From NCBI GenBank assembly GCA_021772935.1, contig JAJFLA010000013.1:1-63946 (forward strand): a DNA stretch of 63,946 nucleotides. The letters run 5' to 3'. This document shows, in pieces, positions 43,820-63,946 of the stretch. A program made the translations under genes and the position numbers. Each line of letters opens with the position of its first letter. Position 1 is the stretch's first letter. Origin of the DNA: Gammaproteobacteria bacterium. Lineage in GTDB: Bacteria > Pseudomonadota > Gammaproteobacteria > Xanthomonadales > SZUA-36. A model generated the notes under the pieces. The model was not told where the DNA came from. It searched no databases and was given only the letters and a program-made list of their open reading frames with translations.

Positions 43820-44032
43820 TTAAGCGGCGACTTCCACAAAATCGAATGAAGACGCGGGGGGCGGGATTTCTTCTCCATGCTCTTTCAAGCTCTGGAGGTG
43901 GAGTTCAATTGCTTCCTGGATGAGTTTAATAACTTCTCTCCGGGACTCTCCCACAACAGCACAGCCAGGAAGATCTGGCGCGTAAGCGCCGAAACTCTTT
44001 GAGCCTTTTTCAATGACTATGGCGTATTTCAT
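43820..44032 (-). CDS. HicB-like antitoxin
   Basis: A 70-residue protein with the HicB core: YAIVIEKGSKSFGAYAPDLPGCAVVGESRREVIKLIQEAIELHLQSLKEHGEEIPPP. It is the antitoxin of the HicA toxin encoded 3 nt upstream. The short form, without a C-terminal DNA-binding domain, is common. It should bind and block HicA; operon repression would need another factor or a complex. Confidence 0.9.
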   Translation of the reverse strand: MKYAIVIEKGSKSFGAYAPDLPGCAVVGESRREVIKLIQEAIELHLQSLKEHGEEIPPPASSFDFVEVAA

Positions 44033-44035
44033 TAA

Positions 44036-44227
44036 TTAATCATACTTCAATTTGGCTTGTTTAAAGATATTTTTCAGAGTGCCGATTGGAATATCAACGC
44101 CGTACTTTCCCGCAACAGTTACGGTACCAGACTTTTCTGGATGACGAAACTGGCGATGACTACCCTTCATACGCACTTGTTCCCAGCCATCTTGGCGCAG
44201 CAACTTAAGAACATCCCTGACTTTCAC
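44036..44227 (-). CDS. HicA toxin
   Basis: A 63-residue double-stranded-RNA-binding-like mRNA interferase: VKVRDVLKLLRQDGWEQVRMKGSHRQFRHPEKSGTVTVAGKYGVDIPIGTLKNIFKQAKL. The catalytic histidine lies in GSHRQFRHP. The start is GTG at 44227, the usual HicA N-terminus; an upstream in-frame ATG at 44293 would add 22 unrelated residues. First gene of a two-gene operon with hicB, order toxin-antitoxin. All key residues are present, so the module looks intact. Confidence 0.9.
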   Translation of the reverse strand: MKVRDVLKLLRQDGWEQVRMKGSHRQFRHPEKSGTVTVAGKYGVDIPIGTLKNIFKQAKLKYD

Positions 44228-44499
44228 AAGCAGAGCTTGCCATATGGTGAGGTTTGCTGGCATTGGCAGATCACCTAACGTTTTGTAGGCCATTTTAGTC
44301 TAGCGAGTCCAGCTCAATTCATGGTCAGTTCCCTCGCGCTTACAACAAACACGCTGTCAGTTTGGAAGATTAGATGTTGCTGTCGGGGCTTTCGTCAGTT
44401 TTTTTAATGACTTTCTTGTATAGCCAAATTAGGCAGGTATTTAACTTAAGCCTGGTTTAGACTGTGGCGAAATTTGCCTCTAGCCTGAAGGGTTTGTGT

Positions 44500-46639: not shown

Positions 46640-47059
46640 TCACGGCGCCGTCAGTTGTTGAACAGCTGCCGCCACTGTTTGAGCGGCTGCAACCAAATCA
46701 GTCACCAGGCGTTCATCCACATTCAGGTCTCCCTCGTATTCTCCCAAGTTGCGGGTGTCATGCGCTTTTGCCAAAATCCGCCAAACTTCAGGGCCCAACC
46801 CAAGTGTACGCGGCACCACTTGAAATACGATGTAACGATGTTTTGCACGATAGCCGTGACTTCTTAAAGCAGCCAAACATAATGCATGTGCAGCGTTATA
46901 GGCCAAATCAAAGCGGCTTTCCAAAGAGAGTCCTGTATTTGCGGCATCATGCAGGCGGGCAAGACCAGAACTTTTCAGGCCATTGAATTCATTGCGATCA
47001 GGCGGTTCCGCTGCCAACGGTCCATTATGTCCTGTCAGATTATCCAGTTGGGAGTTCAC
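46640..47059 (-). CDS. HEPN-domain protein (SAV_6107-like), partner of the nucleotidyltransferase
   Basis: A 139-residue helical protein: LARLHDAANTGLSLESRFDLAYNAAHALCLAALRSHGYRAKHRYIVFQ, and AKAHDTRNLGEYEGDLNVDERLVTDLVAAA near the end, the 'H-x-x-R-N-x-x-E-Y-x-G-D' block seen in HEPN proteins paired with MNT nucleotidyltransferases. HEPN domains often act as RNases or as substrates of the paired enzyme. Start is GTG at 47059, overlapping the MNT gene's end by 20 nt. Second gene of the operon. Confidence 0.8.
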   Translation of the reverse strand: MNSQLDNLTGHNGPLAAEPPDRNEFNGLKSSGLARLHDAANTGLSLESRFDLAYNAAHALCLAALRSHGYRAKHRYIVFQVVPRTLGLGPEVWRILAKAHDTRNLGEYEGDLNVDERLVTDLVAAAQTVAAAVQQLTAP

Positions 47060-47675
47060 TGTCCTTGCCTATGATCCAAATTTTAGGTTGCCCCAGCACG
47101 CGCTTGATAAACGAATTGTCGGATTGAATCCTTTTAGTCAGCTCTTCCAGTGAGTAAATGGTTGGCTGGACGTTCCTTTGTAATTTCTCGGAAACCTCTT
47201 CCAGGGCCGGGAATATGTCAGCATAAGTCAGACTATCGCTGATAATCATCAGATCAATGTCACTGGATGCCGTATCGCTTTTTTTTGCCACTGAACCATA
47301 CACAAATGCCAACTCAGTATGCGACAAAAATGGCTGTAATACAGCTTTAAGAGGCTCAAGCAAAGCCGCCGTTTTGTTAATAATGGAACAAAGCTCTGCA
47401 AACAATGGTGCATCTGGATTGGCCTGATAGTGATTTTGCGAACCAATACGTTTTACTGTCGCCAGGCCACTACGCACCAGACGGGAAAGCTCCCTTTGAA
47501 CCGCACCAGAACCTCCACCTGACTTTCTGATGATCTCATTGGTGTAGAAGCTTTGCCTGGGTTGCCCAAAAAGCAGTGCAAGGACATTTTGTTGTATTTT
47601 GGAAAAGAGTGCGTCCACCATACTGAGTGGCTTACCCTGTTCTGACCTGATAGGTGCTGTGCCCATATTGGGCAT
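47040..47675 (-). CDS. Nucleotidyltransferase with N-terminal winged helix (MNT antitoxin type)
   Basis: About 211 residues: winged-helix DNA-binding domain (ALFSKIQQNVLALLFGQPRQSFYTNEIIRKSGGGSGAVQRELSRLVRSGLATVKRIG), then a minimal nucleotidyltransferase (LAFVYGSVAKKSDTASSDIDLMIIS), with the GS...D-x-D triad intact. In known MNT/HEPN pairs the nucleotidyltransferase AMPylates or otherwise silences the HEPN toxin. The start is uncertain: ATG at 47675 or 47696; both lie within a double palindrome that the winged helix probably binds (see 47660-47695). It is coupled to the HEPN gene by overlap. Confidence 0.85.
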   Translation of the reverse strand: MPNMGTAPIRSEQGKPLSMVDALFSKIQQNVLALLFGQPRQSFYTNEIIRKSGGGSGAVQRELSRLVRSGLATVKRIGSQNHYQANPDAPLFAELCSIINKTAALLEPLKAVLQPFLSHTELAFVYGSVAKKSDTASSDIDLMIISDSLTYADIFPALEEVSEKLQRNVQPTIYSLEELTKRIQSDNSFIKRVLGQPKIWIIGKDSELPTG

Positions 47676-47695
47676 GATAATGCCTATATTGGGCA
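47660..47695. promoter_or_regulatory. Double operator overlapping the MNT start codons
   Basis: TGCCCATATTGGGCA (47660-47674), a perfect palindrome around its central base, and TGCCTATATTGGGCA (47681-47695), with one mismatch, are repeated 21 bp apart, two helical turns on the same face. Read on the minus strand they also encode MPNIGIIMPNMG. Binding here would block both transcription and start-codon access, giving tight self-repression (inference). Confidence 0.7.
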
Positions 47696-47971
47696 TTTTC
47701 AAGTGAAGTATTCGCCATGCGAATTGTTAAACAACCGCTTGAAGTTTTGTGGATACATATTCATTGGCCAAATATGCACGAATCACCCGACTCAGGATAT
47801 CGGCGAGTGACTCTACACTTTGTAGGTAAATTCTGTTCAGTGACTTCGGCTTGCGCCAGAACTAACAAGCTCGCCGCGTGATTATGGCTCAAAGATGATT
47901 CTGCTTACAAAGCGGCAAATGGGGCCTGGGATCTGGATAGAACTATCTGGGAAAACTGCTAGACTCAGAAT

Positions 47972-48715: not shown

Positions 48716-48967
48716 TCAACTGGTTTTATCAAGCTCTTCACGAAGAATGCGCCTGAGCGTTTTACTATCCAAGGGTTTACTTGCGCTGGACAGGTACCGG
48801 CGCAATGCATCATTGATGAGTGTTTGGTACCCGCAGCTTGCTGCCTCTGCTTTTACACGGAAAGCCTCTATCACATCATCATCAAGGTGAATCGTGATCC
48901 GGGTTTTACCCCGTGACTTAAGCACTGCACCTCGCTTCCCCTTACTAAAATCGTATTCCTTTTTCAT
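48716..48967 (-). CDS. BrnA-like antitoxin (ribbon-helix-helix)
   Basis: An 83-residue protein: basic start MKKEYDFSKGKRGAVLKSRGKTRITIHLDDDVIEAFRVKAEAASCGYQTLINDALRRYLSS, a ribbon-helix-helix with the family start 'YDFSKGKRG', ending LRRILREELDKTS. It neutralises BrnT and should bind the operon promoter. Its ATG lies 23 nt inside the end of the brnT gene, so it is translationally coupled. Confidence 0.9.
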   Translation of the reverse strand: MKKEYDFSKGKRGAVLKSRGKTRITIHLDDDVIEAFRVKAEAASCGYQTLINDALRRYLSSASKPLDSKTLRRILREELDKTS

Positions 48968-49223
48968 AATACTTTTGCTCAGACCTGCTAGCTTTACGGG
49001 CGGAAATCAGCCGAATCGTGTTTCCCCGATAGGTATAGACGACAACAACTATCCGCTCCAATGCATCCAACCCAATTACTACGTATCTAGCCTCTTCTTT
49101 TGATGCCAAATCTTCAAAACTTATTGCATCAGGATCGTAAAACACCGGTTCAGCCTCCGAAAAGAAAACCCTGTGTTTTAGCCTGTTTGATTTTGCTTTT
49201 ACGGAGTCCCATGTGATTTTCAT
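48945..49223 (-). CDS. BrnT-like toxin
   Basis: A 92-residue ribonuclease toxin with the BrnT pattern: ITWDSVKAKSNRLKHRVFFSEAEPVFYDPDAISFEDLASKEEARYVVIGLDALERIVVVVYTYRGNTIRLISARKASRSEQKYYEKG. The RLISARKASRxEQxxY block holds the usual catalytic and RNA-contacting residues. First gene of brnTA. The ATG at 49223 is only 16 nt from the 3' end of the broken gene upstream, so the promoter must lie inside that gene's end. Confidence 0.9.
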   Translation of the reverse strand: MKITWDSVKAKSNRLKHRVFFSEAEPVFYDPDAISFEDLASKEEARYVVIGLDALERIVVVVYTYRGNTIRLISARKASRSEQKYYEKGIRF

Positions 49224-53918: not shown

Positions 53919-55508
53919 ATGCGATTAAGAAAAGCTTTAGCAATGCTGTCAAAGTCATCACCATATGCTGTGTCAACGGCAGCCGAATGGACTGACCCTG
54001 AGTTTGAGAAGATTAAAGAGTATTTATATGTTGAAACTGACATAGAAAGGGAATTCAAAACAAAACTCGAGAAACTGAAACCTCATGAAATTGTCTTTTT
54101 GTGTGGTAGCAGCGGAGATGGCAAGTCTGAAATTTTAACTCGCTATAACCAAGAATATAAGAATATCGCCGATTTTCATCTAGACGCTACCCATAGCTTT
54201 GAGCCCAAAAAAACAGCCGTAGAAACTCTAGATAGTATTTTCAGTGAGTTTAATTACTCAGATAAACCGCTGGTCGTGGGAATAAATATAGGAATGTTGG
54301 GTAATTATGAGCGAGAGGCAAGCAAAGAACACATTGCAATTAAATTGGCGATAAAGGAGTTTTTAGATGGAAAGGCAGTTGAGGGAGACTATACGTTTAT
54401 TGATTTTGAGTCATTTCCCAAGTTTCAGATTAAGGAAAGTGAAGTTAAATCCGAATTCTTTAGTTCGCTACTGAATAAAATAGTCAGTGACGATAGCAAA
54501 AATCCGTTCAAAAAATATTTTGATAGTGCCATATCAATAGGTACCGATAAAAAAATACTTGCGAATTTATTACTACTTAGAAATGAGCTTGTGCAAAAGA
54601 CAATCATTGAGCTTCTTCTCAGTGCTCGTGTCAGGAAAGACCAGTTTATTACCGCGCGTATGTTGCTTGATTTTGTTTATTGTATTTTGACTGACCCTGG
54701 TTATTTATTTGACAACCTTTTTGCGGGTGGAAAGAACGAGCTTTTGTTGGTGTTACAGAGTTTTGATCCAAGTATTATCCGAAATAAGAAATTGGATTTA
54801 TTTGTTATTCATAGAACGCTCGGTTTTAAAGAAGACTTATATACTAAACTCATAAACGAATTAAAATCTGAATTTAAGATCATTGAGGAGCTTTCTCCAC
54901 ACTCAATGATTCGGTGCTTTTTCCTACTTAAGAACACAGATCTAGAAAATAATTATCATCAGGACTTTATAGATTCATTTGATGAAAGCGCGCTAACTCT
55001 ATACAAAAGAACATGGCAATTACACAAAGACTATGATGGGGCTGATGAAAAAAAAGCAGAGCTTAAAAAGTTCTATAACGACATAGTTTTGCTCGCGATA
55101 AACAAATATGCAAACAAAGATGCACCTTATCTCAGTAAGGATGAGTTCTATATTTCGTCACATGGTGGATCAGATCTGGCAGCAGAAGTTGACCTTTCTG
55201 TTTCATACGGTGACATAGAAAATGACAACCTACATGATATCTCTAATTTCAAGCTACATATCACGGTGAATGATGAGTTATTACCTTCGATTCAAATTAA
55301 TGTAAACCTCTTGGCTATGATGCTAAGTATTGTTAATGGGTTTAGACCTAACAAGCATGATAAGAACAGTGTGGTGCTGCTGGATGACTTGATCAATAAA
55401 ATTGCCGAGCACGCCAGCAACTCGAAAGTGCTTTTCCTTCACCGAAATGATGTCCGTATAAAGCTAAAAGACAATCCGGATGGTGATATTCGAGTCAGTG
55501 GGCTATAG
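53919..55508 (+). CDS. dptF: DNA phosphorothioation-dependent restriction protein DptF
   Basis: A 529-residue P-loop ATPase of the dnd-associated DptF family. Residues 1-60 (MLSKSSPYAVSTAAEWTDPEFEKIKEYLYVETDIEREFKTKL) match the family start; Walker A is FLCGSSGDGKSEIL (GSSGDGKS at 63-70), and the family segment YTFIDFESFPKF follows near 165. With DptG and DptH it forms the restriction arm of the Dnd system, attacking DNA that lacks phosphorothioate marks. The ATG at 53919 has GGAAC about 11 nt upstream. It is the first gene of the operon and clearly lower in G+C than genes left of 53 kb (one sampled 60-base line has 20 G/C). Confidence 0.9.
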   Translation: MRLRKALAMLSKSSPYAVSTAAEWTDPEFEKIKEYLYVETDIEREFKTKLEKLKPHEIVFLCGSSGDGKSEILTRYNQEYKNIADFHLDATHSFEPKKTAVETLDSIFSEFNYSDKPLVVGINIGMLGNYEREASKEHIAIKLAIKEFLDGKAVEGDYTFIDFESFPKFQIKESEVKSEFFSSLLNKIVSDDSKNPFKKYFDSAISIGTDKKILANLLLLRNELVQKTIIELLLSARVRKDQFITARMLLDFVYCILTDPGYLFDNLFAGGKNELLLVLQSFDPSIIRNKKLDLFVIHRTLGFKEDLYTKLINELKSEFKIIEELSPHSMIRCFFLLKNTDLENNYHQDFIDSFDESALTLYKRTWQLHKDYDGADEKKAELKKFYNDIVLLAINKYANKDAPYLSKDEFYISSHGGSDLAAEVDLSVSYGDIENDNLHDISNFKLHITVNDELLPSIQINVNLLAMMLSIVNGFRPNKHDKNSVVLLDDLINKIAEHASNSKVLFLHRNDVRIKLKDNPDGDIRVSGL

Positions 55509-55510
55509 GC

Positions 55511-56854
55511 ATGAGCATCTTGAAACAAGAAATCACTGTGTCCAATGTCAATTCACTAAAAGGTTTTTTTCCGGTGAGAACCAAAAGCAGTGATGAATCA
55601 TTTGATTGGGGGGTGGCACAGGGAATCGTGGTACGAAATCTCTATAGAAAAGTGCTAGCGAAGAATTTGCATGTTAAGGATGGTGACGGGGTCAGCTATG
55701 AAAAATTCAAGGAGGTTTGTCGATCCGACTTTGGTAAACGCCTAGATGACATGCAGTTGTGGGAATACTTAGAAGATATGTATTTTTCCAGGGATACGTT
55801 TTACCGTATTGCACCTGAATGCCTTCTCTTTAAAATAGCAACGTTGACGTCAAGCTCGCCAAAAAATCGGTTAGGAGATCTTTTTTCGAGTCTAATGCAA
55901 AATTACTTCAATGAAAGTCCAGAAAGGATGAAAAGAAATTTTCTGGAACAGCAGGTTGTCAGCTCGCTTAGATCACAGAATACGCTTAATGACTTTTCAG
56001 AATCCAGATATTCAAATGGTATTGAGGAACGCCCATTCCTTCCGTTTTTAACAGCATATTTCCGCAAAGATATTGCTTTTTTATCGAATCACCCAGCATA
56101 TCTCATTGAGCACCTCGAAGAATTTTTAAAGCTTTACGCCTACCTATATACGGCTCAGCTTGGATTGAATATTAAAGGCCTGACCCGTGAACCATCCTCT
56201 AGGCCACTATATTTTATTATGGAGAACGAGACTGCAAGCCTCGAGAGAACAGATCTGCAAAGAAATGGGCATCGAAAAGTTTCCGTTAATATTGGGTTGA
56301 TATTTCCATATTTGACCATGGCTGAAACATTGATAAATGTTGAGCCTGGTGACACTAGGTTACCTTTATGGGAAATTACTTCGCAATTGACTCAGAGTGA
56401 TGTCCCTGTCTTAAGGGACTATGCCAAAGCCTTCGCCAAGCACCGGAACCTAACAACTAAATTTGAAAACAACAATCAGGATCCTGTTTACTGGTTAGAA
56501 AAACTATTGGAATTATCCACCCTTCAGTTTGGTAAAGGTGAAACTCGCGCTGCCGCCCAGGGGAAATTTGTAAGGACCACCGAAGTTGAATTGTGTGGCA
56601 CTTTTGTAAGAAACCGTGGACGCGCAGGCAAAATATTGGTGATGAATCAGGACTATCTCTCGTTGCTTACTAATTTGGCAGTAGGAAATGAAGAGCGGCT
56701 ACGATTTCATGAGTTGTTGGATGAATTCAGGGCTCGCGGGGTTTATTTCGATAAGAAATCACAGCAATCGTTGATTAAGTTTTACGAACGCATAGGAAAT
56801 GTTGAACGCATGAGTGACAGTGGAGATGCAGTATATGTCCGTAAAACCGTTTGA
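55511..56854 (+). CDS. dptG: DNA phosphorothioation-dependent restriction protein DptG
   Basis: A 447-residue protein of the DptG family, recognised from its position and the overall pattern (ITVSNVNSLKGFFPVRTKSSDESFDWGVAQGIVVRNLYR; CLLFKIATLTSSSPKNRLGDLFSSLMQNYF; a C-terminal helical region VGNEERLRFHELLDEFRARGVYFDKKSQQSLIKFYERIGNVERMSDS). The last part looks like a winged-helix/helical end. No nuclease motif is evident; it is required for restriction in described systems. It starts 2 nt after dptF and overlaps dptH by 20 nt, so all three proteins are translated as a block. Confidence 0.87.
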   Translation: MSILKQEITVSNVNSLKGFFPVRTKSSDESFDWGVAQGIVVRNLYRKVLAKNLHVKDGDGVSYEKFKEVCRSDFGKRLDDMQLWEYLEDMYFSRDTFYRIAPECLLFKIATLTSSSPKNRLGDLFSSLMQNYFNESPERMKRNFLEQQVVSSLRSQNTLNDFSESRYSNGIEERPFLPFLTAYFRKDIAFLSNHPAYLIEHLEEFLKLYAYLYTAQLGLNIKGLTREPSSRPLYFIMENETASLERTDLQRNGHRKVSVNIGLIFPYLTMAETLINVEPGDTRLPLWEITSQLTQSDVPVLRDYAKAFAKHRNLTTKFENNNQDPVYWLEKLLELSTLQFGKGETRAAAQGKFVRTTEVELCGTFVRNRGRAGKILVMNQDYLSLLTNLAVGNEERLRFHELLDEFRARGVYFDKKSQQSLIKFYERIGNVERMSDSGDAVYVRKTV

Positions 56855-59800
56855 AGATTTCATCACTTCATACTTTCTGGAATGGGCGTCCACTGGCGTT
56901 GAAGCGGGCTTCCGCTATCAATTCCCATCACCAAACCTAGACAACAGCCTAAAACTCTACAAGTCTTTGATTAATTCTGCATTAATTTCAGGTGTTATTA
57001 GCACCAAAGGCTGCACGCTAGCATATACCAACTGCGGCATCACCAAACTGATACCAGTGGTTCATGATGACCAGCCTGGTCGGCCCGGCTACACAGAGAA
57101 TTTCATTTCTTTTTTGCGTGATGAGGTAGCGGCACAACAAGGAGAGTTTAAGTCTACGGCGTTGCTTATCATTCATAACAGTCTTTTGGATACTATTATA
57201 AATAGTGCTGAGGATCTAACCGGCTCTGATTCTGTATTTGATCCGCATGAGATCAAGTCGTCACTAAAGAAACTGGTTGATGAAAATCGCAATCAAGAAA
57301 GCGCACTAATTTCCAATATCTTGCTCGATTATCAGTTTGATTTAATCAAAGAAGATCAAGGCAGCATGTTCGGTTTTGAAACCTTATATAAAGCTATTGC
57401 TGATGGTGTAATTGAGTTTGAAGAACTTAATTTATTACCCGACCCGGCCATTAGACAAACGAAAGGCTCACGCGCGGAAGTCCAGATAAGACTTCGTCTT
57501 GATAAGAATCGTGAGCTTTATGAGCAAATCGGAAATGTGTTGGAGCACTACCCAGATCAATTGTCAGGCAATTTACCATATCTAAGCGCTTCATTTATTG
57601 AAAAGAACTTTTCCCCAGAAGCACCGGAAGCTTGGAAATCGGTTACATACGATGAATTCCTGAAGGAACAAAATCGAAACCGTGATCAAAATCTGCAAAT
57701 CAAGAGAGAATCGTCTGCTACGGGCGAACTTATTGTAAGGACAAATGGGACAACAAAGGCCGCGCAGAGAGGAAGGCACTTACTACTGGAAGTTGATCCC
57801 GAAAGAGAAGATTTCGACATAGCTTTGGAGTTTATTGGTGGCAAGGTTAAACAGGCTGAATTGAAACTGATAGATAAGTGTTCAATTGATAAAATCTCAA
57901 AAGACAATATTAGCCTCTCTGGCGGTAACGTTAATACCTCATTAATCATCACTGGTGAAATGCGTGAGCAACCACGTTTCTTTCGTCTCGAATTGAAACG
58001 TGACAAAACCTCCGAAAATTACAAGTTTCATTGTCTTGTTGTTAAAAAACGCCATTTCAATATAACCGCCATAAAGAATCACTACTTAATAAACGTCACC
58101 AAACCACAAATTAAGCTACAAACTCTGGAAACAACCCTGGAAATATCAAATAGGGGTAGTGGTATTACCAGTACATTGAGGGACGTGGGGCAATCTTTCA
58201 ACGTTTTAGACCAAGATCAAATCGACTTCACTGATCTATCAAATGAAGTTGATCGAATTTCATTTGATGTGACCAATGGTGAGGCGAGATTAACTTTTGA
58301 TGTAGAAGGGGCAGCAGCAACGGAAGTGCTTTCTTTGCCACTTATTCTGGATTTATCGAAGAAATCACATTTATTCACCGACACTCTATATGGTGTTTAT
58401 AACCTGAGCAAAGAACGTGTCTACATCAATAACCAAGAGGTTAAAGGCTCACCGCGCGTTACTCAACTATTAAATCATGAGAAGCATCTTGTTGATAACA
58501 AGTTACTTTTTTGCAATGACGAAACAGGTGTGACTCTTACTTATTCAGAGTTAGAGATTGATGCACCAGCTTTGGCCGACGCTTACAGTGATCTCTTTCG
58601 GTACTATGTTCAGAACAAAACGTTGCCTTCATTATGTGGCTGGGGACCAAGCTATCAGCGACTTGTTGCTGAAGTTGTTAAAGAATATCAACTCTATTTG
58701 AAGTCTATCCCACAGAAGCAATATCTAGAGGATTCACAAAAACGTGTCTTGAAAGTTGGAATGGGATATTTTCAAGGGAAAGAATACATACTACCTTTTC
58801 ACCCTTTGGTGCTTTCTTACTACTACTTTCTGGTTACCTCTGCGATTAGTGATGAATCAAATAGCTTTCTGAAGTTGCCCCCCGTTACCGTGGAAAGGCT
58901 AAATCCTCAGGGCCTATTGCCCTTTATTTATGATTCGAACCATGAATTCTCCTATGTAAAGGCCGAAGAGGATAATTGTTTTTGGCTGCATTGCGTCCCG
59001 CAAAAGGACACCAAATACAGCTATATGACAAAATTAGTGAGAGACAAAATATCGGAATTCTCTACGGCTTTTAGTTCTCTATTTGAAGCACCGACTTCAG
59101 TCGATGCAAGAACTACATTAATTATAAACTCAGTCAACAATTATGATAACCACGAGCTTTTCATGGGCATCGTTGGGCATGTGACTAAAAACCGCGCCAA
59201 AACCTTCAATGTCCACATTAACCTCTATGATGATGGTTTGATGGAAACGGAATTCGACCGTTTTGCAAATATGGCAAGTTATGATCGCATTAAACAGCGA
59301 TATGGTTTGAATAAAGGAACTGCCAAGGACCATGCGGATACGATTGTTGACATGCTGCGAACCAGGGTGACATACAGCAAATTTCGACATCCAGAGTGTG
59401 ATGCTCAGGCCTATGCTCACTTAACATTTTTCAGAAACAATCAAAAAGTAAAGGTTATCAATGTTAATCCTACAGAAAAACTATCGGGAGTCTGCTGTCA
59501 CGGCCTGATTAATGGGGAGGCATCTGCGAGTGAGCAAGGTAATTACATTACTGGGTTTGGTCTCAAAAACGTTGAGCACAAAGACTTACCCCATGTCGAG
59601 ATTGCTAAACTTGTCGGTCGGATGATTCGACCTGCCAGGGAGTCAACCGTGGAGTATCGCGAAAATAGCGCGATAGCCCTTGCTGTTGATGATCAATTCA
59701 AAGAACTATTGGAACGTTCATACGATAGCTCTATTTGGACATCCATTATCGACCCCAAGGTCACTTTGGATTTTTTTGAGCACAGTGAAAACATGCTACT

Positions 59801-61988
59801 GATTCACTACTCAGATCAATACACAAGCTCTGCCAGTTATGATGCAATTACAGTGACACGCCAAACGGATCTTTACGATCAAGTGTTAGCAAGAGAAGGT
59901 GGTGGGCTGATAGGTGAATTCAATGCGTTTAATGGCGAGTGGCTGCTGCAGATGGTGACAGCTGCAAGCAATATCCGTAAAGAACGTAAGGGTATTTTGG
60001 CAGCCTATAAATTAGTCAGTTGTCTGCTAGCTGATTCAGATGTTACCTGGGTACCGATGTCTGCGGCTGAAATGATACGGGTGTCTGGCAACATCGGCCT
60101 CAATATGTCTGAATCTGAACTTTCCAGGCACGTGCAGGGCTATACATCTGGAGCTATTTCAGACGATGTCCTTTTTGTTGGCATAAAAGAAGACACGTTG
60201 TTTTTACTTCCGCTGGAAGTAAAAACCGGACGTAGCTATAACGCGACCAAGGCCGTCAAGCAAGCACAAGAACTGGCACGTTATTTGGTTGAGGACGTGC
60301 TTAGCGGTGACGCCCTTGAAAGAAAGCTTTATCGCAGTCTGTTTATCCGCCAGTTATTGATGCAGGTAGACAAGTATTTGCTCTACTCAGTTTATCCAGA
60401 AGGTTACTTCGACCCGTTGCTAGACACCAAAGAGTGGTGGCTACAGGGTGATTATAAGGTGGCAGCAATTGCCAATTATCCCAGAGGGTTTGTAGTTGCT
60501 AATTTAGAGGGTGATAGTTGTCTTGAGACCCGTACGGAAGAGGCGGATGGTATACTAAAAATTGAAATACCCTATAGTTTTATTCCCCAGACTATTTCAA
60601 CCAAGTTACAGCAGCTGAAGATTAACATACCATCGACTGCGATCGCTGCGGTGGATAATAAATACTTTCTGAAGGAAGTGCGGGCAGAAGAGTTTAACTA
60701 TGACGATTCTGTGGACGAACTGGAAGAAGGTGGCAATGATGCATTAGCAGATGATTCACAAGAAATACAGCCAATTGTTAGTAAGTTGGAGCCATCAGAC
60801 ACTGAAGATGATGGGAAAAGTGATGAATCGTTTTCAGGTGTAGCCACTCCCGTTTCTGAAGACTCCCTAAAAATACTGATAGGCCATGAGGTCAAGCATG
60901 GCGAGGCCGTCTATTGGGAGCCGACGAACACTTCGAAATTCATGAACACAAACTCCGGCATCATTGGCACCATGGGTACTGGTAAAACCCAGTGTACTAA
61001 ATCAGTAGTGACCCAGCTTTATAGAAATCAACATAAAAATGTTGATGCCAAGCCGATTGGCATACTGATTTTTGACTATAAATCTGATTATGTTGATGAC
61101 AAGTTTGCGAAGGCGACTTCTGCGAAGAAATTTAAACTCCACAAGTTACCCTACAACCCACTAAGCCTATTTGGTGATACCCCAATGCTGCCCGTACATA
61201 CGGCAAGAGGCTTTTCAGAAACTATGAGTAAGGCCTTTGGTTTGGGGCAAAAACAACAGTTGCGCTTAAGAAAATTGATTGCTGATGCCTATGAACTTGC
61301 GGGTATTAGTAAATCAGATGCAAAAACCTGGTCCAAGTCACCACCAACAATTGCCGATGTTTGGACTTTGTTTATTGATCAAGAAAAGGTTGAGGAGGAT
61401 TCGCTTTACGCCGCACTTGAGAGTTTGCATGAGCTCGAGATTTTCGAAGATGACGTTACAAAATGCACCAGCCTATATCAGCTAATTGACGGCATCACAG
61501 TGATCGAATTGGCGGGTTACCCCACTCAGATTCAGAACCTGGTGGTGGCATTAACCCTAGATTTGTTCTATTCACAAATGCAGAAACAAGGCAAGCCAAA
61601 GGTTAAAGGTGATTTCCGTCAGGTGACTAAGTTAGTTTTGGTGGATGAGGCCGATAATTTTATGGCGCAGGATTTTCCAAGCCTACGTAAAGTGCTCAAG
61701 GAAGGCCGAGAATATGGTGTCGGTGTGATTCTGTCCACACAGGACATTACTCATTTTAAAACCAAGGAAAATGACTACTCGGCTTATATTCTAAGTTGGG
61801 TTATACATCGTGTTTCTCAAATAAAAAACCAAGATATTAAATCTCTGTTTAACAAGGATAATAAAGGTGAACAGGATCACTTAATGAAAATCATACGCGA
61901 ATTGGATAAGCACTTTAGCTTGTATGTGGATGGGAATAAGAGGATAAAAAAAGTCCGAGACAAGCCATTTTGGGAATTGTTGAATTAA
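56835..61988 (+). CDS. dptH: DNA phosphorothioation-dependent restriction protein DptH (HerA/FtsK-type ATPase)
   Basis: A 1717-residue protein, the motor of the restriction complex. The first about 1290 residues are family-specific with no domain I can name. An acidic linker (about 1290-1340, with DDSQEIQPIV and SDTEDDGKSDES) leads into the HerA-like ATPase: Walker A GTMGTGKT at 1378-1385, IGILIFDYKSDY, Walker B LVLVDEAD with D1604/E1605, and STQDITHF as sensor. The end DKPFWELLN is family-like. The ATG at 56835 follows GGAG by nine bases; upstream GTG at 56814 is unlikely. It overlaps dptG by 20 nt. Confidence 0.92.
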   Translation: MSVKPFEDFITSYFLEWASTGVEAGFRYQFPSPNLDNSLKLYKSLINSALISGVISTKGCTLAYTNCGITKLIPVVHDDQPGRPGYTENFISFLRDEVAAQQGEFKSTALLIIHNSLLDTIINSAEDLTGSDSVFDPHEIKSSLKKLVDENRNQESALISNILLDYQFDLIKEDQGSMFGFETLYKAIADGVIEFEELNLLPDPAIRQTKGSRAEVQIRLRLDKNRELYEQIGNVLEHYPDQLSGNLPYLSASFIEKNFSPEAPEAWKSVTYDEFLKEQNRNRDQNLQIKRESSATGELIVRTNGTTKAAQRGRHLLLEVDPEREDFDIALEFIGGKVKQAELKLIDKCSIDKISKDNISLSGGNVNTSLIITGEMREQPRFFRLELKRDKTSENYKFHCLVVKKRHFNITAIKNHYLINVTKPQIKLQTLETTLEISNRGSGITSTLRDVGQSFNVLDQDQIDFTDLSNEVDRISFDVTNGEARLTFDVEGAAATEVLSLPLILDLSKKSHLFTDTLYGVYNLSKERVYINNQEVKGSPRVTQLLNHEKHLVDNKLLFCNDETGVTLTYSELEIDAPALADAYSDLFRYYVQNKTLPSLCGWGPSYQRLVAEVVKEYQLYLKSIPQKQYLEDSQKRVLKVGMGYFQGKEYILPFHPLVLSYYYFLVTSAISDESNSFLKLPPVTVERLNPQGLLPFIYDSNHEFSYVKAEEDNCFWLHCVPQKDTKYSYMTKLVRDKISEFSTAFSSLFEAPTSVDARTTLIINSVNNYDNHELFMGIVGHVTKNRAKTFNVHINLYDDGLMETEFDRFANMASYDRIKQRYGLNKGTAKDHADTIVDMLRTRVTYSKFRHPECDAQAYAHLTFFRNNQKVKVINVNPTEKLSGVCCHGLINGEASASEQGNYITGFGLKNVEHKDLPHVEIAKLVGRMIRPARESTVEYRENSAIALAVDDQFKELLERSYDSSIWTSIIDPKVTLDFFEHSENMLLIHYSDQYTSSASYDAITVTRQTDLYDQVLAREGGGLIGEFNAFNGEWLLQMVTAASNIRKERKGILAAYKLVSCLLADSDVTWVPMSAAEMIRVSGNIGLNMSESELSRHVQGYTSGAISDDVLFVGIKEDTLFLLPLEVKTGRSYNATKAVKQAQELARYLVEDVLSGDALERKLYRSLFIRQLLMQVDKYLLYSVYPEGYFDPLLDTKEWWLQGDYKVAAIANYPRGFVVANLEGDSCLETRTEEADGILKIEIPYSFIPQTISTKLQQLKINIPSTAIAAVDNKYFLKEVRAEEFNYDDSVDELEEGGNDALADDSQEIQPIVSKLEPSDTEDDGKSDESFSGVATPVSEDSLKILIGHEVKHGEAVYWEPTNTSKFMNTNSGIIGTMGTGKTQCTKSVVTQLYRNQHKNVDAKPIGILIFDYKSDYVDDKFAKATSAKKFKLHKLPYNPLSLFGDTPMLPVHTARGFSETMSKAFGLGQKQQLRLRKLIADAYELAGISKSDAKTWSKSPPTIADVWTLFIDQEKVEEDSLYAALESLHELEIFEDDVTKCTSLYQLIDGITVIELAGYPTQIQNLVVALTLDLFYSQMQKQGKPKVKGDFRQVTKLVLVDEADNFMAQDFPSLRKVLKEGREYGVGVILSTQDITHFKTKENDYSAYILSWVIHRVSQIKNQDIKSLFNKDNKGEQDHLMKIIRELDKHFSLYVDGNKRIKKVRDKPFWELLN

Positions 61989-62020
61989 TAAATACTCTGG
62001 GTTGAATTTGGGGAAGAAGT

Positions 62021-62491
62021 TTGAATTATTTAAAATCGTTTTTTCTAAGAACATGGAATGCTTTTTTCGACATCCACTTTTGGATTGAGTTCATAATTGT
62101 ACTTCCTTTTTCAGCACTAGGCGTTTGGATTCCTTGGTCCTTTGATTGGGGCGGAAAAAGCAATTTTTTATTGCCAGCACCATGGTTTACTTTCGGTATG
62201 ACGACATTGGTATTAGTTTTTTTCAGACGATTTTTCATGGAAGAAAGTGAAGATAGGTATCTTATTGCCAATAGGTTTCTGATAGTATTTCCTATAGTTG
62301 GCGCGGCATTTCTTTACACCAAGTCAGCATTGAACTACTTGGTCGTAGACCCTTCATTGATACCCGAATTTGAGTACAAATATACAACATATGCGATTTG
62401 CTTAACCACAATTGTTTGGCTTGTCAATTTTGTCCAGATTAACAAATACGACTCAACGGATAAATTAAACCCTTTGGGTGGAAGACTATGA
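62021..62491 (+). CDS. Unrecognised four-helix membrane protein inside the Dnd operon
   Basis: A 156-residue protein with four hydrophobic segments (about 17-37, 50-66, 84-100, 121-139) separated by short charged loops (FFMEESEDRYLIANR, DPSLIPEFEYKYT). The start is a TTG at 62021 with an excellent ribosome-binding site (GGGGAAG 6 nt upstream), 32 nt after dptH. Its stop overlaps the next gene's ATG (ATGA at 62488-62491), so translation is coupled to the DGQHR protein. I know of no dpt or dnd gene of this kind. It might anchor the restriction complex or report membrane damage (inference only). It shares the AT-rich composition of its neighbours. Confidence 0.75.
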   Translation: MNYLKSFFLRTWNAFFDIHFWIEFIIVLPFSALGVWIPWSFDWGGKSNFLLPAPWFTFGMTTLVLVFFRRFFMEESEDRYLIANRFLIVFPIVGAAFLYTKSALNYLVVDPSLIPEFEYKYTTYAICLTTIVWLVNFVQINKYDSTDKLNPLGGRL

Positions 62492-63714
62492 AGCCATATT
62501 TAGATTTACCAGCAATCAAGGTAGTGCAGCCACTGGGGATTTTCTACTCGGTTATGATCCCTGCCGATAAGCTGGAGAAGATTACTTACGTTGCGAGAGC
62601 AAAGTATAAAAAAGGCGGTGTCTTTAACAGTGTTTTTTCTCCAATTGAAGGAACACAGCGAGAAGCAAGCTCTAAACGTGAACGTCAAATAGCAGATTAT
62701 ATAAATTCAACAGAAAGTGCACTTCCCAACACTGTAATTCTGGGAGCAAATATAAAAAAAGACGGCAGTCTGGTCGGTGAAGAAAAAAGTTGGTTTGTTA
62801 AAAAGATACCAGGCGGTTTCTACCGCCTAATCATACCCATTGAGGAGGAATTAGCTTCGGTTATAGATGGTCAGCATAGGCTAAATGGGTGCATCGCTTC
62901 GGAGAGGAAAAGCTTCGAGCTATTATGTTCGATCTATTTGGATATTCCTGCCCCCTATCATGCTTACCTATTTGCGACGATAAATGCTAATCAGAAGCCA
63001 GTAGATAAAAGTTTGGCGTACGACCTTTATGGGTTTGGACTCGATGAAGAGTCACGAGACACTTGGTCGCCCGAGAAATTCGCCGTGTATGTTGTGCGTA
63101 AATTAGCCGCTGCAGGGCCAATGCAAGGTAAAATATTGCTAGGGGCACAACATGATGATGAAGACCAAGGCATGATCTCATTGGCCGCGCTGGTTGACAG
63201 TATTTTGTCACTAATAAGTTCAAACCCGAAAAAAGATCGAGACGCCATCCTTTATCAAAAGAATACGCTTGGAAGAAAGGCGCTAGAAGTTACTCATCGT
63301 TCACCGCCTCTGCGTCAAAAATTTGTTGATGGAGACGATGCTTACATTGAAGCTATGTTGACAACATTCATATCTGATATTTTTAGTATAGCTATGGACA
63401 CTCAAGCCAAGAATTCATTTTTATTGAAGACGGTTGGCATTCAAGCTTTGTTCGGTTACCTAAAAATGAAACTGAAAGCTTCCGATGGCCTATACAGTGA
63501 CTCTGATATTCAAAGTGACTTGGAGACTATAAGTGAGCTAGATTTTGAAAAGACTTTTTACAATGCGTCGGGAATGGGTTTGTCAAGAATTCGAAATGTA
63601 ATATTGCTCGCAACGGGTCTAAAAAATATCCATGATCTGGAGAAGAGTAGAGATTACAAAAATTATGTCGAGCTATTTGAGTCAGAGATTAGTGTTTTGG
63701 CAGATATTGACTAA
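62488..63714 (+). CDS. DGQHR-domain protein, DndB-like
   Basis: A 408-residue protein with the signature VIDGQHRLNGC (DGQHR at 127-131) and the family surroundings VQPLGIFYSVMIPADKL at the start, RERQIADYI, ATINANQKPVDKSLAYDLY and a C-terminal helical part. In Dnd systems DndB is the DGQHR protein that represses the modification operon and tunes phosphorothioation; other DGQHR proteins are linked to defence islands. Being larger than typical DndB (about 350-380 residues), it may be either DndB itself or a Dnd-associated DGQHR protein. It is the last gene before an IS66-type element. Start overlap ATGA with the membrane protein. Confidence 0.82.
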   Translation: MKPYLDLPAIKVVQPLGIFYSVMIPADKLEKITYVARAKYKKGGVFNSVFSPIEGTQREASSKRERQIADYINSTESALPNTVILGANIKKDGSLVGEEKSWFVKKIPGGFYRLIIPIEEELASVIDGQHRLNGCIASERKSFELLCSIYLDIPAPYHAYLFATINANQKPVDKSLAYDLYGFGLDEESRDTWSPEKFAVYVVRKLAAAGPMQGKILLGAQHDDEDQGMISLAALVDSILSLISSNPKKDRDAILYQKNTLGRKALEVTHRSPPLRQKFVDGDDAYIEAMLTTFISDIFSIAMDTQAKNSFLLKTVGIQALFGYLKMKLKASDGLYSDSDIQSDLETISELDFEKTFYNASGMGLSRIRNVILLATGLKNIHDLEKSRDYKNYVELFESEISVLADID

Positions 63715-63891
63715 TACTGGGGCGTAACAAAGTTAACTAATGTGTTAAAGAAATTTTCAGGCTAAGAGAGTAAGGGGGGGTGTAAGCCTAGCTGTGTGAC
63801 TGCTGGGTAAGCGGTTAACAAACCACACCCTGTTATCTTGACCTGGTTCCGGTCAGTCTTTGCGCTCACGATAAAACAGGAGCGGTGAGCA
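63715..63891. mobile_element. Junction and probable left end of an IS66-type insertion sequence
   Basis: The first 50-60 bp after the dndB-like stop are AT-rich island DNA. From 63770 the sequence turns GC-rich and begins GTAAGG, with a second GTAAGCC at 63782; IS66-family ends begin GTAA, so one of these is likely the IS border. The remainder is the IS leader with a strong ribosome-binding site (AGGAG) for the next frame. Confidence 0.5.
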
Positions 63892-63946
63892 ATGCAAAAA
63901 ATGATTCCGGCGCTGACAAAGCGGCAACAGTTTTGGCTGGAGCATA
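63892..63946 (+). CDS. IS66-family accessory protein, start only (cut by window edge)
   Basis: The first 18 residues read MQKMIPALTKRQQFWLEH. 'Lxx-R-Q-x-FW-x-x-H' is how the IS66 accessory protein TnpA usually begins. AGGAG lies 8 nt upstream of the ATG. The frame runs off the window, so identity rests on this short stretch. Confidence 0.55.
   Translation, partial: MQKMIPALTKRQQFWLEH

What the first reader, a model, noticed from the sequence alone, without database searches (positions are those of the whole stretch)
53919..63714. Dnd restriction operon with an extra membrane gene: dptF-dptG-dptH-(4TM)-DGQHR
Five genes on one strand with gaps or overlaps of +2, -20, +32 and -4 nt form one coupled block. 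The first three are DptF, DptG and DptH by family sequence. The fourth, a four-helix membrane protein, is not among the Dnd/Dpt components known to me, and is translationally tied to the DGQHR protein. A membrane partner could tether the restriction machine, sense phage adsorption, or add an abortive function. This would be a new variant of phosphorothioation-based defence.
Basis: partly seen in the sequence, partly recalled or inferred. Interest (0 to 1): 0.82.

Follow-up and report, generated by a model that had tools for sequence, protein, structure and literature searches.

The report
Membrane partner of DNA-marking defence genes
A small four-helix membrane protein sits beside a ParB-like protein next to DNA sulfur-marking defence genes in many unrelated bacteria, and in E. 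coli this pair shares one gene slot with nuclease cassettes, which suggests a swappable second weapon that may act at the membrane.

Summary
The five-gene block is real: dptF, dptG, dptH, a four-helix membrane gene (TM) and a DGQHR gene. The contig ends inside an IS66 element whose other end, with the same 8-bp duplication, opens the contig carrying dndEDCB.

The membrane gene is not peculiar to this operon. In a scan with DGQHR protein 1 (80 loci, eight phyla, one archaeal), all 78 loci with upstream sequence have a TM gene of one family directly before DGQHR (broken in one), usually touching or overlapping it. The pair goes with phosphorothioation modification genes; only 16 of 80 have dptFGH. 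A sister DGQHR clade has a different membrane protein, mostly beside an adenine methyltransferase.

In E. coli the place between dptH and dndE holds TM+DGQHR, or GmrSD_N(DGQQR)+AAA nuclease, or an Mrr-type nuclease; Salmonella Cerro 87 has dndI. I read TM-DGQHR as an exchangeable effector cassette: ParB-fold sensor plus membrane effector. The module is well supported; the mechanism is inferred. DGQHR's link to phosphorothioation has been published since 2011; my searches found no mention of the membrane partner.

The parts
53919..55508 (+). dptF (DndF)
   Evidence: TIGR03238 462.2 bits, cut-off 50
55511..56854 (+). dptG (DndG)
   Evidence: TIGR03236 274.5 bits, cut-off 20
56814..61988 (+). dptH (DndH), HerA-like ATPase in its C-terminal part; earliest start codon given
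   Evidence: TIGR03237 1316 bits, cut-off 620.65; Pfam DUF87/HerA 30.2 bits
62021..62491 (+). TM: 156-aa four-helix membrane protein, TTG start; member of the DGQHR-partner family
   Evidence: four hydrophobic segments; family profile built without it and L027 finds it at E 3.9e-12; AlphaFold2 pLDDT 80.5
62488..63714 (+). DGQHR protein, TIGR04172-like, ParB-like fold
   Evidence: TIGR04172 384.6 bits (cut-off 450), TIGR03187 142.7; Pfam DndB 30.4 bits, cut-off 29.1; AlphaFold2 pLDDT 92; Foldseek ParB/Noc
63799..63946 (.). 8-bp target duplication (63799-63806) and left end of an IS66-type element (from 63807) that runs off the contig; its right end opens contig C53, which carries dndEDCB
   Evidence: inverted ends share 20 of 30 bases, same 8-bp duplication on both contigs; IS66 C-terminal domain at the C53 start, 35.8 bits

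Best explanation
TM and DGQHR form a two-gene cassette that travels with DNA-marking defence genes, above all phosphorothioation (PT) modification genes, and is not a subunit of DptFGH. Shown by sequence: one homologous TM family directly before this DGQHR clade, tight spacing, a ParB-like fold and invariant DGQHR motif, predicted cytosolic termini, association with modification genes under several restriction types, and interchange at one E. coli slot with ParB-like-NTPase+nuclease or nuclease cassettes. Inferred: the DGQHR protein is an NTP-binding sensor that reads marked or unmarked DNA, as DndI and SspE do, and its output is the membrane protein, which when switched on disturbs the membrane and stops phage growth as a second line behind DptFGH. 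It would be the membrane counterpart of DndI.
For: TM before DGQHR in 77 of 80 loci and, broken, in L090; the other 2 have no upstream sequence. One family: 86 of 86 recovered in 5-fold cross-validation against 3594 other ORFs. Spacing median -4 nt. dndC/dndD in 67 of 80 held flanks, dptFGH in 16. Context swaps on the DGQHR tree, also beside the window. E. coli slot alternatives beside dptH 96.7-98.2% identical to L115: TM+DGQHR, or GmrSD_N(DGQQR)+AAA nuclease; beside more diverged dptH an Mrr nuclease. dndI in Salmonella Cerro 87 lies in the same place and works as a PT-sensing effector (PMC11662687, section 17 and passages). ParB/Noc are the best Foldseek matches. Sister clade beside D12 methyltransferases, 6 of 7.
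Against: No function was measured. No pore or toxin family matches the TM protein. The Foldseek matches have E of only about 3e-3 and low TM-scores. Most listed E. coli copies have a split DGQHR gene (25 of 30 rows), so the pair is dispensable there. A ParB-like protein can equally be a regulator (DndB is described as a repressor; PMC4507180, passages). 6 of the 16 loci with other DGQHR families were read with short upstream flanks, and one of them (L014) has a larger 5-TM ORF upstream, so membrane partners may be more general than I state.
Confidence: 0.5

Rival explanations
1. Membrane-anchored regulator: DGQHR is a DndB-like, NTP-dependent DNA-binding regulator or clamp held at the membrane by TM (as Noc links DNA and membrane), and it sets the level or place of modification rather than killing.
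For: Pfam DndB domain; own DndB found by the DGQHR profile only weakly, E 1.6e-5; ParB/Noc fold matches; the pair follows the modification genes; a DndB-like protein binds ATP and GTP (PMC12704722, passages).
Against: A separate dndB is present in 25 of 80 loci and in the window's genome, so it does not replace DndB. In E. coli the same slot holds nuclease cassettes.
Confidence: 0.25
2. Tether or subunit of DptFGH.
For: Same operon here and in E. coli; 3 of 3 sampled genomes with DptH over the cut-off have the pair behind it.
Against: dptFGH in only 16 of 80 loci with the pair; 4 of 7 plasmid records with dptF lack it; E. coli dptFGH loci with other genes in the slot.
Confidence: 0.07
3. Toxin-antitoxin-like stabiliser: TM is a membrane toxin held in check by DGQHR, which keeps the modification island from being lost.
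For: Two overlapping genes, one small and membrane-bound; some copies on plasmids.
Against: In E. coli the TM gene is still annotated beside a DGQHR gene in two pieces in 25 of 30 listed rows, which should be lethal if DGQHR were the antitoxin and TM were expressed.
Confidence: 0.1

Closest known systems
DndI of Salmonella Cerro 87 (PMC11662687)
   Same: Gene behind dptH/dndH and facing dndE; ParB-superfamily NTPase domain (DGQQR there, DGQHR here); goes with PT modification.
   Different: DndI carries its own HNH nickase; here no nuclease domain is matched and the partner is a separate membrane protein.
TIGR04172, DNA phosphorothioation-associated DGQHR protein 1 (PMC3226654)
   Same: The fifth gene matches it over nearly its whole length (384.6 bits).
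   Different: Below the curated cut-off of 450; the model says nothing of a membrane partner.
DndB (TIGR03233)
   Same: Same ParB-like superfamily; Pfam DndB domain at 30.4 bits.
   Different: The genome has its own DndB at 513.9 bits; this protein does not match TIGR03233 at E <= 1.
Noc and ParB CTPase switches
   Same: Best Foldseek matches; Noc is described as coupling DNA and membrane binding (PMC12704722, passage).
   Different: Low TM-scores; nucleotide use untested; membrane part is a separate protein here.
RexA-RexB of phage lambda (recalled, not tested)
   Same: Works-like analogy: cytosolic sensor plus small four-TM membrane effector.
   Different: No sequence or structural relation was tested.

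Membership tests
DptFGH (DndFGH) restriction system | DptF, DptG and DptH over curated cut-offs, in one operon | tested here: met
DptFGH (DndFGH) restriction system | PT modification genes in the same genome | tested here: met
   dndC 593.4 bits, dndB 513.9 on contig C53; contig ends match across an IS66 element
DptFGH (DndFGH) restriction system | TM and DGQHR as obligate DptFGH components | tested here: not met
   16 of 80 loci have dptFGH; 4 of 7 plasmid records with dptF lack the pair
TIGR04172 DGQHR protein 1 | score over 450 bits | tested here: not met
   384.6 bits; its relatives L027 and L116 score 402.6 and 390.3, so the cut-off looks strict for this branch
TIGR04172 DGQHR protein 1 | next to PT modification genes | tested here: met
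   IS66 junction; 67 of 80 related loci with dndC/dndD
DndI | HNH nuclease domain fused to the ParB-like domain | tested here: not met
   no nuclease family among Pfam matches at E <= 1
AgrB (name that RefSeq gives the E. coli TM protein) | Pfam AgrB match over the cut-off | tested here: not met
   none in the window protein; AgrB not among the 24 families matched by any of the 70 members of A3; the E. coli allele alone reaches 23.9 against 23.0
ParB-CTPase fold | fold match | tested here: inconclusive
   ParB/Noc rank first, probability near 1, E 2.8e-3, TM-score to query 0.19-0.27
ParB-CTPase fold | nucleotide binding or hydrolysis | not testable with these tools
   DGQHR residues invariant in 68 sequences, no assay
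Membrane abortive effector | membrane damage or growth arrest on infection | not testable with these tools
   none

The most novel reading that the evidence does not exclude
TM-DGQHR is a new class of DNA-mark-reading abortive effector: a ParB-fold NTP switch that senses whether DNA carries the cell's own mark (phosphorothioate in one clade, probably adenine methylation in the other) and opens or disrupts the membrane when the mark is missing. It would be the sole effector in loci with modification genes but no known restriction genes.
Probability: 0.22. Interest if true: 0.88.

Novelty: new variant of a known kind. Interest (0 to 1): 0.64.

Why it matters
Many phosphorothioation gene sets lack DptFGH, and what enforces them is an open question (PMC10853773, abstract and section 17, proposes assorted nucleases). 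A conserved sensor-plus-membrane pair that takes the place of nuclease cassettes at the same slot would mean that DNA marks can control the membrane as well as DNA cleavage, and it can be tested directly in laboratory E. coli. It also suggests that the E. coli protein named 'accessory gene regulator B family' is misnamed.

Tried and rejected
Direct search with the 156-aa protein gave nothing outside its own genome: 0 of 60 relatives, none in viral contigs or plasmids. It diverges too fast for single-sequence search; using its neighbour worked. These negatives therefore do not show absence.

DndE-TM fusion (L034): one MAG protein joins a DndE domain to the TM segments. The dndD part before it runs on from a frame that looks like a sugar-phosphate epimerase (recalled, not searched), so I treat the locus as rearranged or misassembled and do not use it.

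AgrB annotation in E. coli: rejected, see Membership tests. Structure search of the TM model: no PDB match with E <= 0.001. VIA-align was not available. The PF18736 search was an uninformative guess; nothing rang in its controls.

Limits of the counts. The 80 loci come from two degenerate patterns and are the best 80 of 84 confirmed. They hold near-duplicates (L084/L085; L076 is the same plasmid stretch as L019). Neighbour labels rest on tblastn with 24 query proteins, so 'modification only' does not prove that no restriction gene is there. The RE query is a helicase-containing protein that scores TIGR04095 at 642.9; weak hits to it may be other helicases. The TM profile search of 398 genomes gave 3 strong hits, all beside DGQHR, and 12 of 27 bits or less that I take as chance and did not inspect; it missed G629, whose TM gene scores 37.2 bits with my profile, so it is not a sensitive test for TM genes without DGQHR. 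Two of its 3 strong hits lie on contigs with the same lengths as those of L065 and L070 and are probably the same loci. The four E. coli cassette counts were not checked for overlap between genomes. TM segments were predicted by a hydropathy window only (threshold 1.5, 1.4).

Other DGQHR families. Of 16 such loci (L007-L009, L011-L015, L121, L122, L141-L146; L010 and L016 are parts of the L143 genome region), 1 (L014) has an ORF of 3 or more TM segments directly upstream (352 aa, 5 segments) and 3 (L011-L013) have an upstream ORF with 2. So a membrane partner is typical of the two clades but not strictly confined to them.
Full report
OBSERVATION. The five ORFs exist at the reported coordinates and spacings. 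Family models confirm DptF, DptG and DptH over their cut-offs; the fifth is a DGQHR/DndB-like protein that scores 384.6 against TIGR04172 (cut-off 450). The fourth is a 156-aa protein with four hydrophobic segments and no usable family match. The window is a whole contig, C5.

WHOLE LOCUS. dndC lies on contig C53, with dndB (513.9 bits), dndD-like and dndE-like genes and a divergent cysteine-desulfurase-like gene, close to the start of that contig. C5 ends in an IS66-type left end and C53 starts with the matching right end: 20 of 30 terminal bases agree in inverted orientation, and the same 8-bp duplication lies outside both ends. The C53 start encodes an IS66 C-terminal domain. So the chromosome most likely reads dptF-dptG-dptH-TM-DGQHR > [IS66] < dndE-D-C-B. 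Apart from the IS this is the order seen in E. coli.

THE MEMBRANE GENE IS A FIXED PARTNER OF DGQHR. The TM protein itself finds nothing in 60 relatives, viral contigs or plasmids. Its neighbour does: tblastn of DGQHR against plasmids found 36 records, and all of the 10 that I opened first have a short ORF directly upstream; 9 of them show 3-4 hydrophobic segments and the tenth, L021, belongs to the same family by sequence. A scan of genome contigs with the DGQHR alignment A1 gave 80 loci: 56 Pseudomonadota, 15 Bacteroidota, 2 Thermodesulfobacteriota, 2 Campylobacterota, 1 each of Acidobacteriota, Nitrospirota, Verrucomicrobiota and a methanogen, 1 unplaced. 77 of 80 have an upstream ORF of at least 90 aa; 74 of these 77 have 3 or more predicted TM segments and 3 have two, against 17 of 276 other ORFs of similar size. 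Of the 3 others, two (L094, L098) have no upstream sequence and one (L090) has the TM gene broken by a stop.

ONE FAMILY. The 86 TM proteins (window, 8 from plasmid records, 77 from the scan) form one phmmer component. In 5-fold cross-validation 86 of 86 were recovered at E < 1e-3 against 3594 other ORFs. In the run without the window and L027 the only strong non-member was L090's broken copy, in truth a member; the next was a reversed sequence at E 0.067, and the window protein was found at E 3.9e-12. Conserved features are a G-[IV]-W after the first helix, W-W in the fourth and GG in the tail. Positive charges favour cytosolic N-terminus, 2-3 loop and C-terminus. The gene pair overlaps or nearly touches in 76 of 77 cases, median -4 nt. 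The AlphaFold2 model has pLDDT 80.5 and no PDB match at E <= 0.001.

WHAT IT TRAVELS WITH. tblastn with 24 neighbour proteins shows dndC and/or dndD in 67 of 80 held flanks; of the other 13, 6 have a TIGR04095-like gene and 7 none of my markers (several of them at contig ends). dptFGH genes are in 16, TIGR04095-like restriction genes in 19, DndE-FtsK genes in 17, and 21 have modification genes without any of these. A separate dndB is present in 25 of 80. On a quick tree of 97 DGQHR proteins the six context labels change 33 times (shuffled mean 60; least possible 5), so contexts cluster but are swapped often. The window's sister, L027 from Citrifermentans bremense, has a TIGR04095-like gene and no dptFGH in its held stretch, and carries TM-DGQHR directly before dndBCDEA. 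From the other side: 3 of 397 sampled genomes have DptH over the cut-off (own genome included), and all 3 have TM+DGQHR after dptH; a second draw of 340 genomes added none. Of 7 plasmid records with dptF, 3 have the pair and 4 do not (in the Aeromonas record my queries found only DptF and DptG). In 398 genomes the TM profile gave 3 strong hits, all beside DGQHR; it missed G629, so this is a weak test for lone TM genes.

A SISTER CLADE BESIDE METHYLTRANSFERASES. Seven further loci carry a DGQHR protein of one separate clade (support 100), each with a 3-5 TM ORF of 157-212 aa directly upstream. In 6 of 7 the gene before that is a D12/Dam-type adenine methyltransferase, by Pfam in five and by annotation in L119. 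The seventh, L120, has an MT-A70 methyltransferase and a BglII-type endonuclease nearby; L026 also has a BglII-type endonuclease. Three of the seven are from viral-contig records. This clade's TM proteins are not detectably related to the first family (hhalign probability 10.5), and their own leave-one-out E-values run from 6.8e-29 to 0.0083, so even their unity is weak for L120 and L026. Of 16 loci with other DGQHR families, 1 (L014) has an upstream ORF of 3 or more TM segments, of a different size (352 aa), and 3 have an upstream ORF with 2; one of the 16 is a DpdB by NCBIfam (L143). So a membrane partner is typical of two DGQHR clades rather than of the whole superfamily.

THE E. COLI SLOT. 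dptH matches in 203 of 5426 E. coli genomes, in 176 over at least 80% of the query. I opened 7 loci. Between dptH and dndE they hold TM+DGQHR (L021, L115, L164), a GmrSD_N protein with DGQQR motif plus an AAA-type ATP-dependent nuclease (L162, L163, L165) or an Mrr-type nuclease with HARE-HTH (L166). DNA matches to these cassettes: TM+DGQHR allele 1 in 123 genomes (109 over at least 80% of the query), allele 2 in 19, the L162 cassette in 31, the L166 nuclease in 9. L021, L164, L162 and L163 have dptH 96.7-98.2% identical to that of L115 over at least 5042 of 5055 nt, so the cassette was exchanged beside an almost unchanged dptH; L166 and L165 have more diverged dptH (81% and 77% over about 3840 nt). 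Overlap between the genome sets was not checked. In Salmonella Cerro 87 the gene in this place is dndI, a ParB-superfamily (DUF262) NTPase with an HNH nickase, cotranscribed with dndFGH, which gives phage protection with dndBCDE alone (PMC11662687, section 17 and passages). The other occupants of this slot are thus mark-reading or nuclease effectors, which is my main reason to read TM-DGQHR as an effector cassette whose output is at the membrane.

DGQHR PROTEIN. The motif DGQHR is invariant in 68 sequences. The model is confident (pLDDT 92, pTM 0.86). Foldseek puts ParB and Noc first, at probability near 1 but with E 2.8e-3 and TM-scores to the query of 0.19-0.27, as only the N-terminal part is ParB-like. 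Sequence search of the PDB found nothing. That DndB is an ATP-dependent repressor and that a DndB-like protein binds ATP and GTP comes from passages.

DECAY. In E. coli 55989-like loci the DGQHR gene is in two pieces: of 30 listed rows (of 123 records) 25 are annotated as split, 1 carries an IS1, and 4 show a single DGQHR protein 1. I saw the stop itself only in L021 and intact copies in L115 and L164. In Methylophaga (L090) both genes are broken while dptFGH give long matches. The pair can therefore be lost without loss of the rest, which fits an optional effector or a dispensable regulator.

LITERATURE. TIGR04172 was defined in PMC3226654 as a family next to DPT genes with or without DptFGH (passages). 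PMC4373003 notes 1-3 hypothetical proteins between dpt and dnd in E. coli, found only in dnd-positive genomes (passages). PMC10853773 argues that modification and DptFGH are commonly decoupled and lists nucleases in these neighbourhoods (abstract, passages, section 17); in its main text 'transmembrane' occurs once, in a reference title. No paper in the library holds both DGQHR and transmembrane, six hold DGQHR, and I saw no description of the TM partner in the listings, whose papers I did not open beyond those named here. Supplements could not be read.

VERDICT. The module is near certain; the mechanism is an inference at about even odds.

Noticed in passing
window 63799-63946 and L005 (C53) 1-148: IS66-type element between DGQHR and dndE, with an 8-bp target duplication, breaks the assembly into two contigs.
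   Followed up: yes
L090:8276-10062: Methylophaga sulfidovorans: TM and DGQHR are both broken while dptF, dptG and dptH give long matches.
   Followed up: partly
L021:8998-10161 and the rows: The common E. coli DGQHR gene is annotated in two pieces in 25 of 30 listed rows; intact copies exist (L115, L164).
   Followed up: partly
L021:8479-9000: RefSeq names the E. coli TM protein 'accessory gene regulator B family'; it rests on a marginal Pfam AgrB match (23.9 against 23.0 bits) that the window protein and the 70 aligned relatives do not show.
   Followed up: yes
L034:8175-8981: DndE domain fused to the TM segments in one MAG; the locus looks rearranged.
   Followed up: partly
L121:5875-7745 and L122:2350-4303: Another DGQHR family is followed by a related partner of about 300 aa without TM segments (phmmer E 2.7e-8 between the two); L122 also has a NotI-family endonuclease. 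L142 and L145 have partners of similar size.
   Followed up: no
window 43820-44293, 48716-49223, 46640-47702: Small gene pairs that look like HicAB, BrnTA and a nucleotidyltransferase/HEPN-type pair (from reading the translations, recalled, not searched); the contig may be a defence-rich region.
   Followed up: no
L014:2236-3291: A 352-aa ORF with 5 predicted TM segments directly upstream of a distant DGQHR gene; may be a third kind of membrane partner.
   Followed up: no
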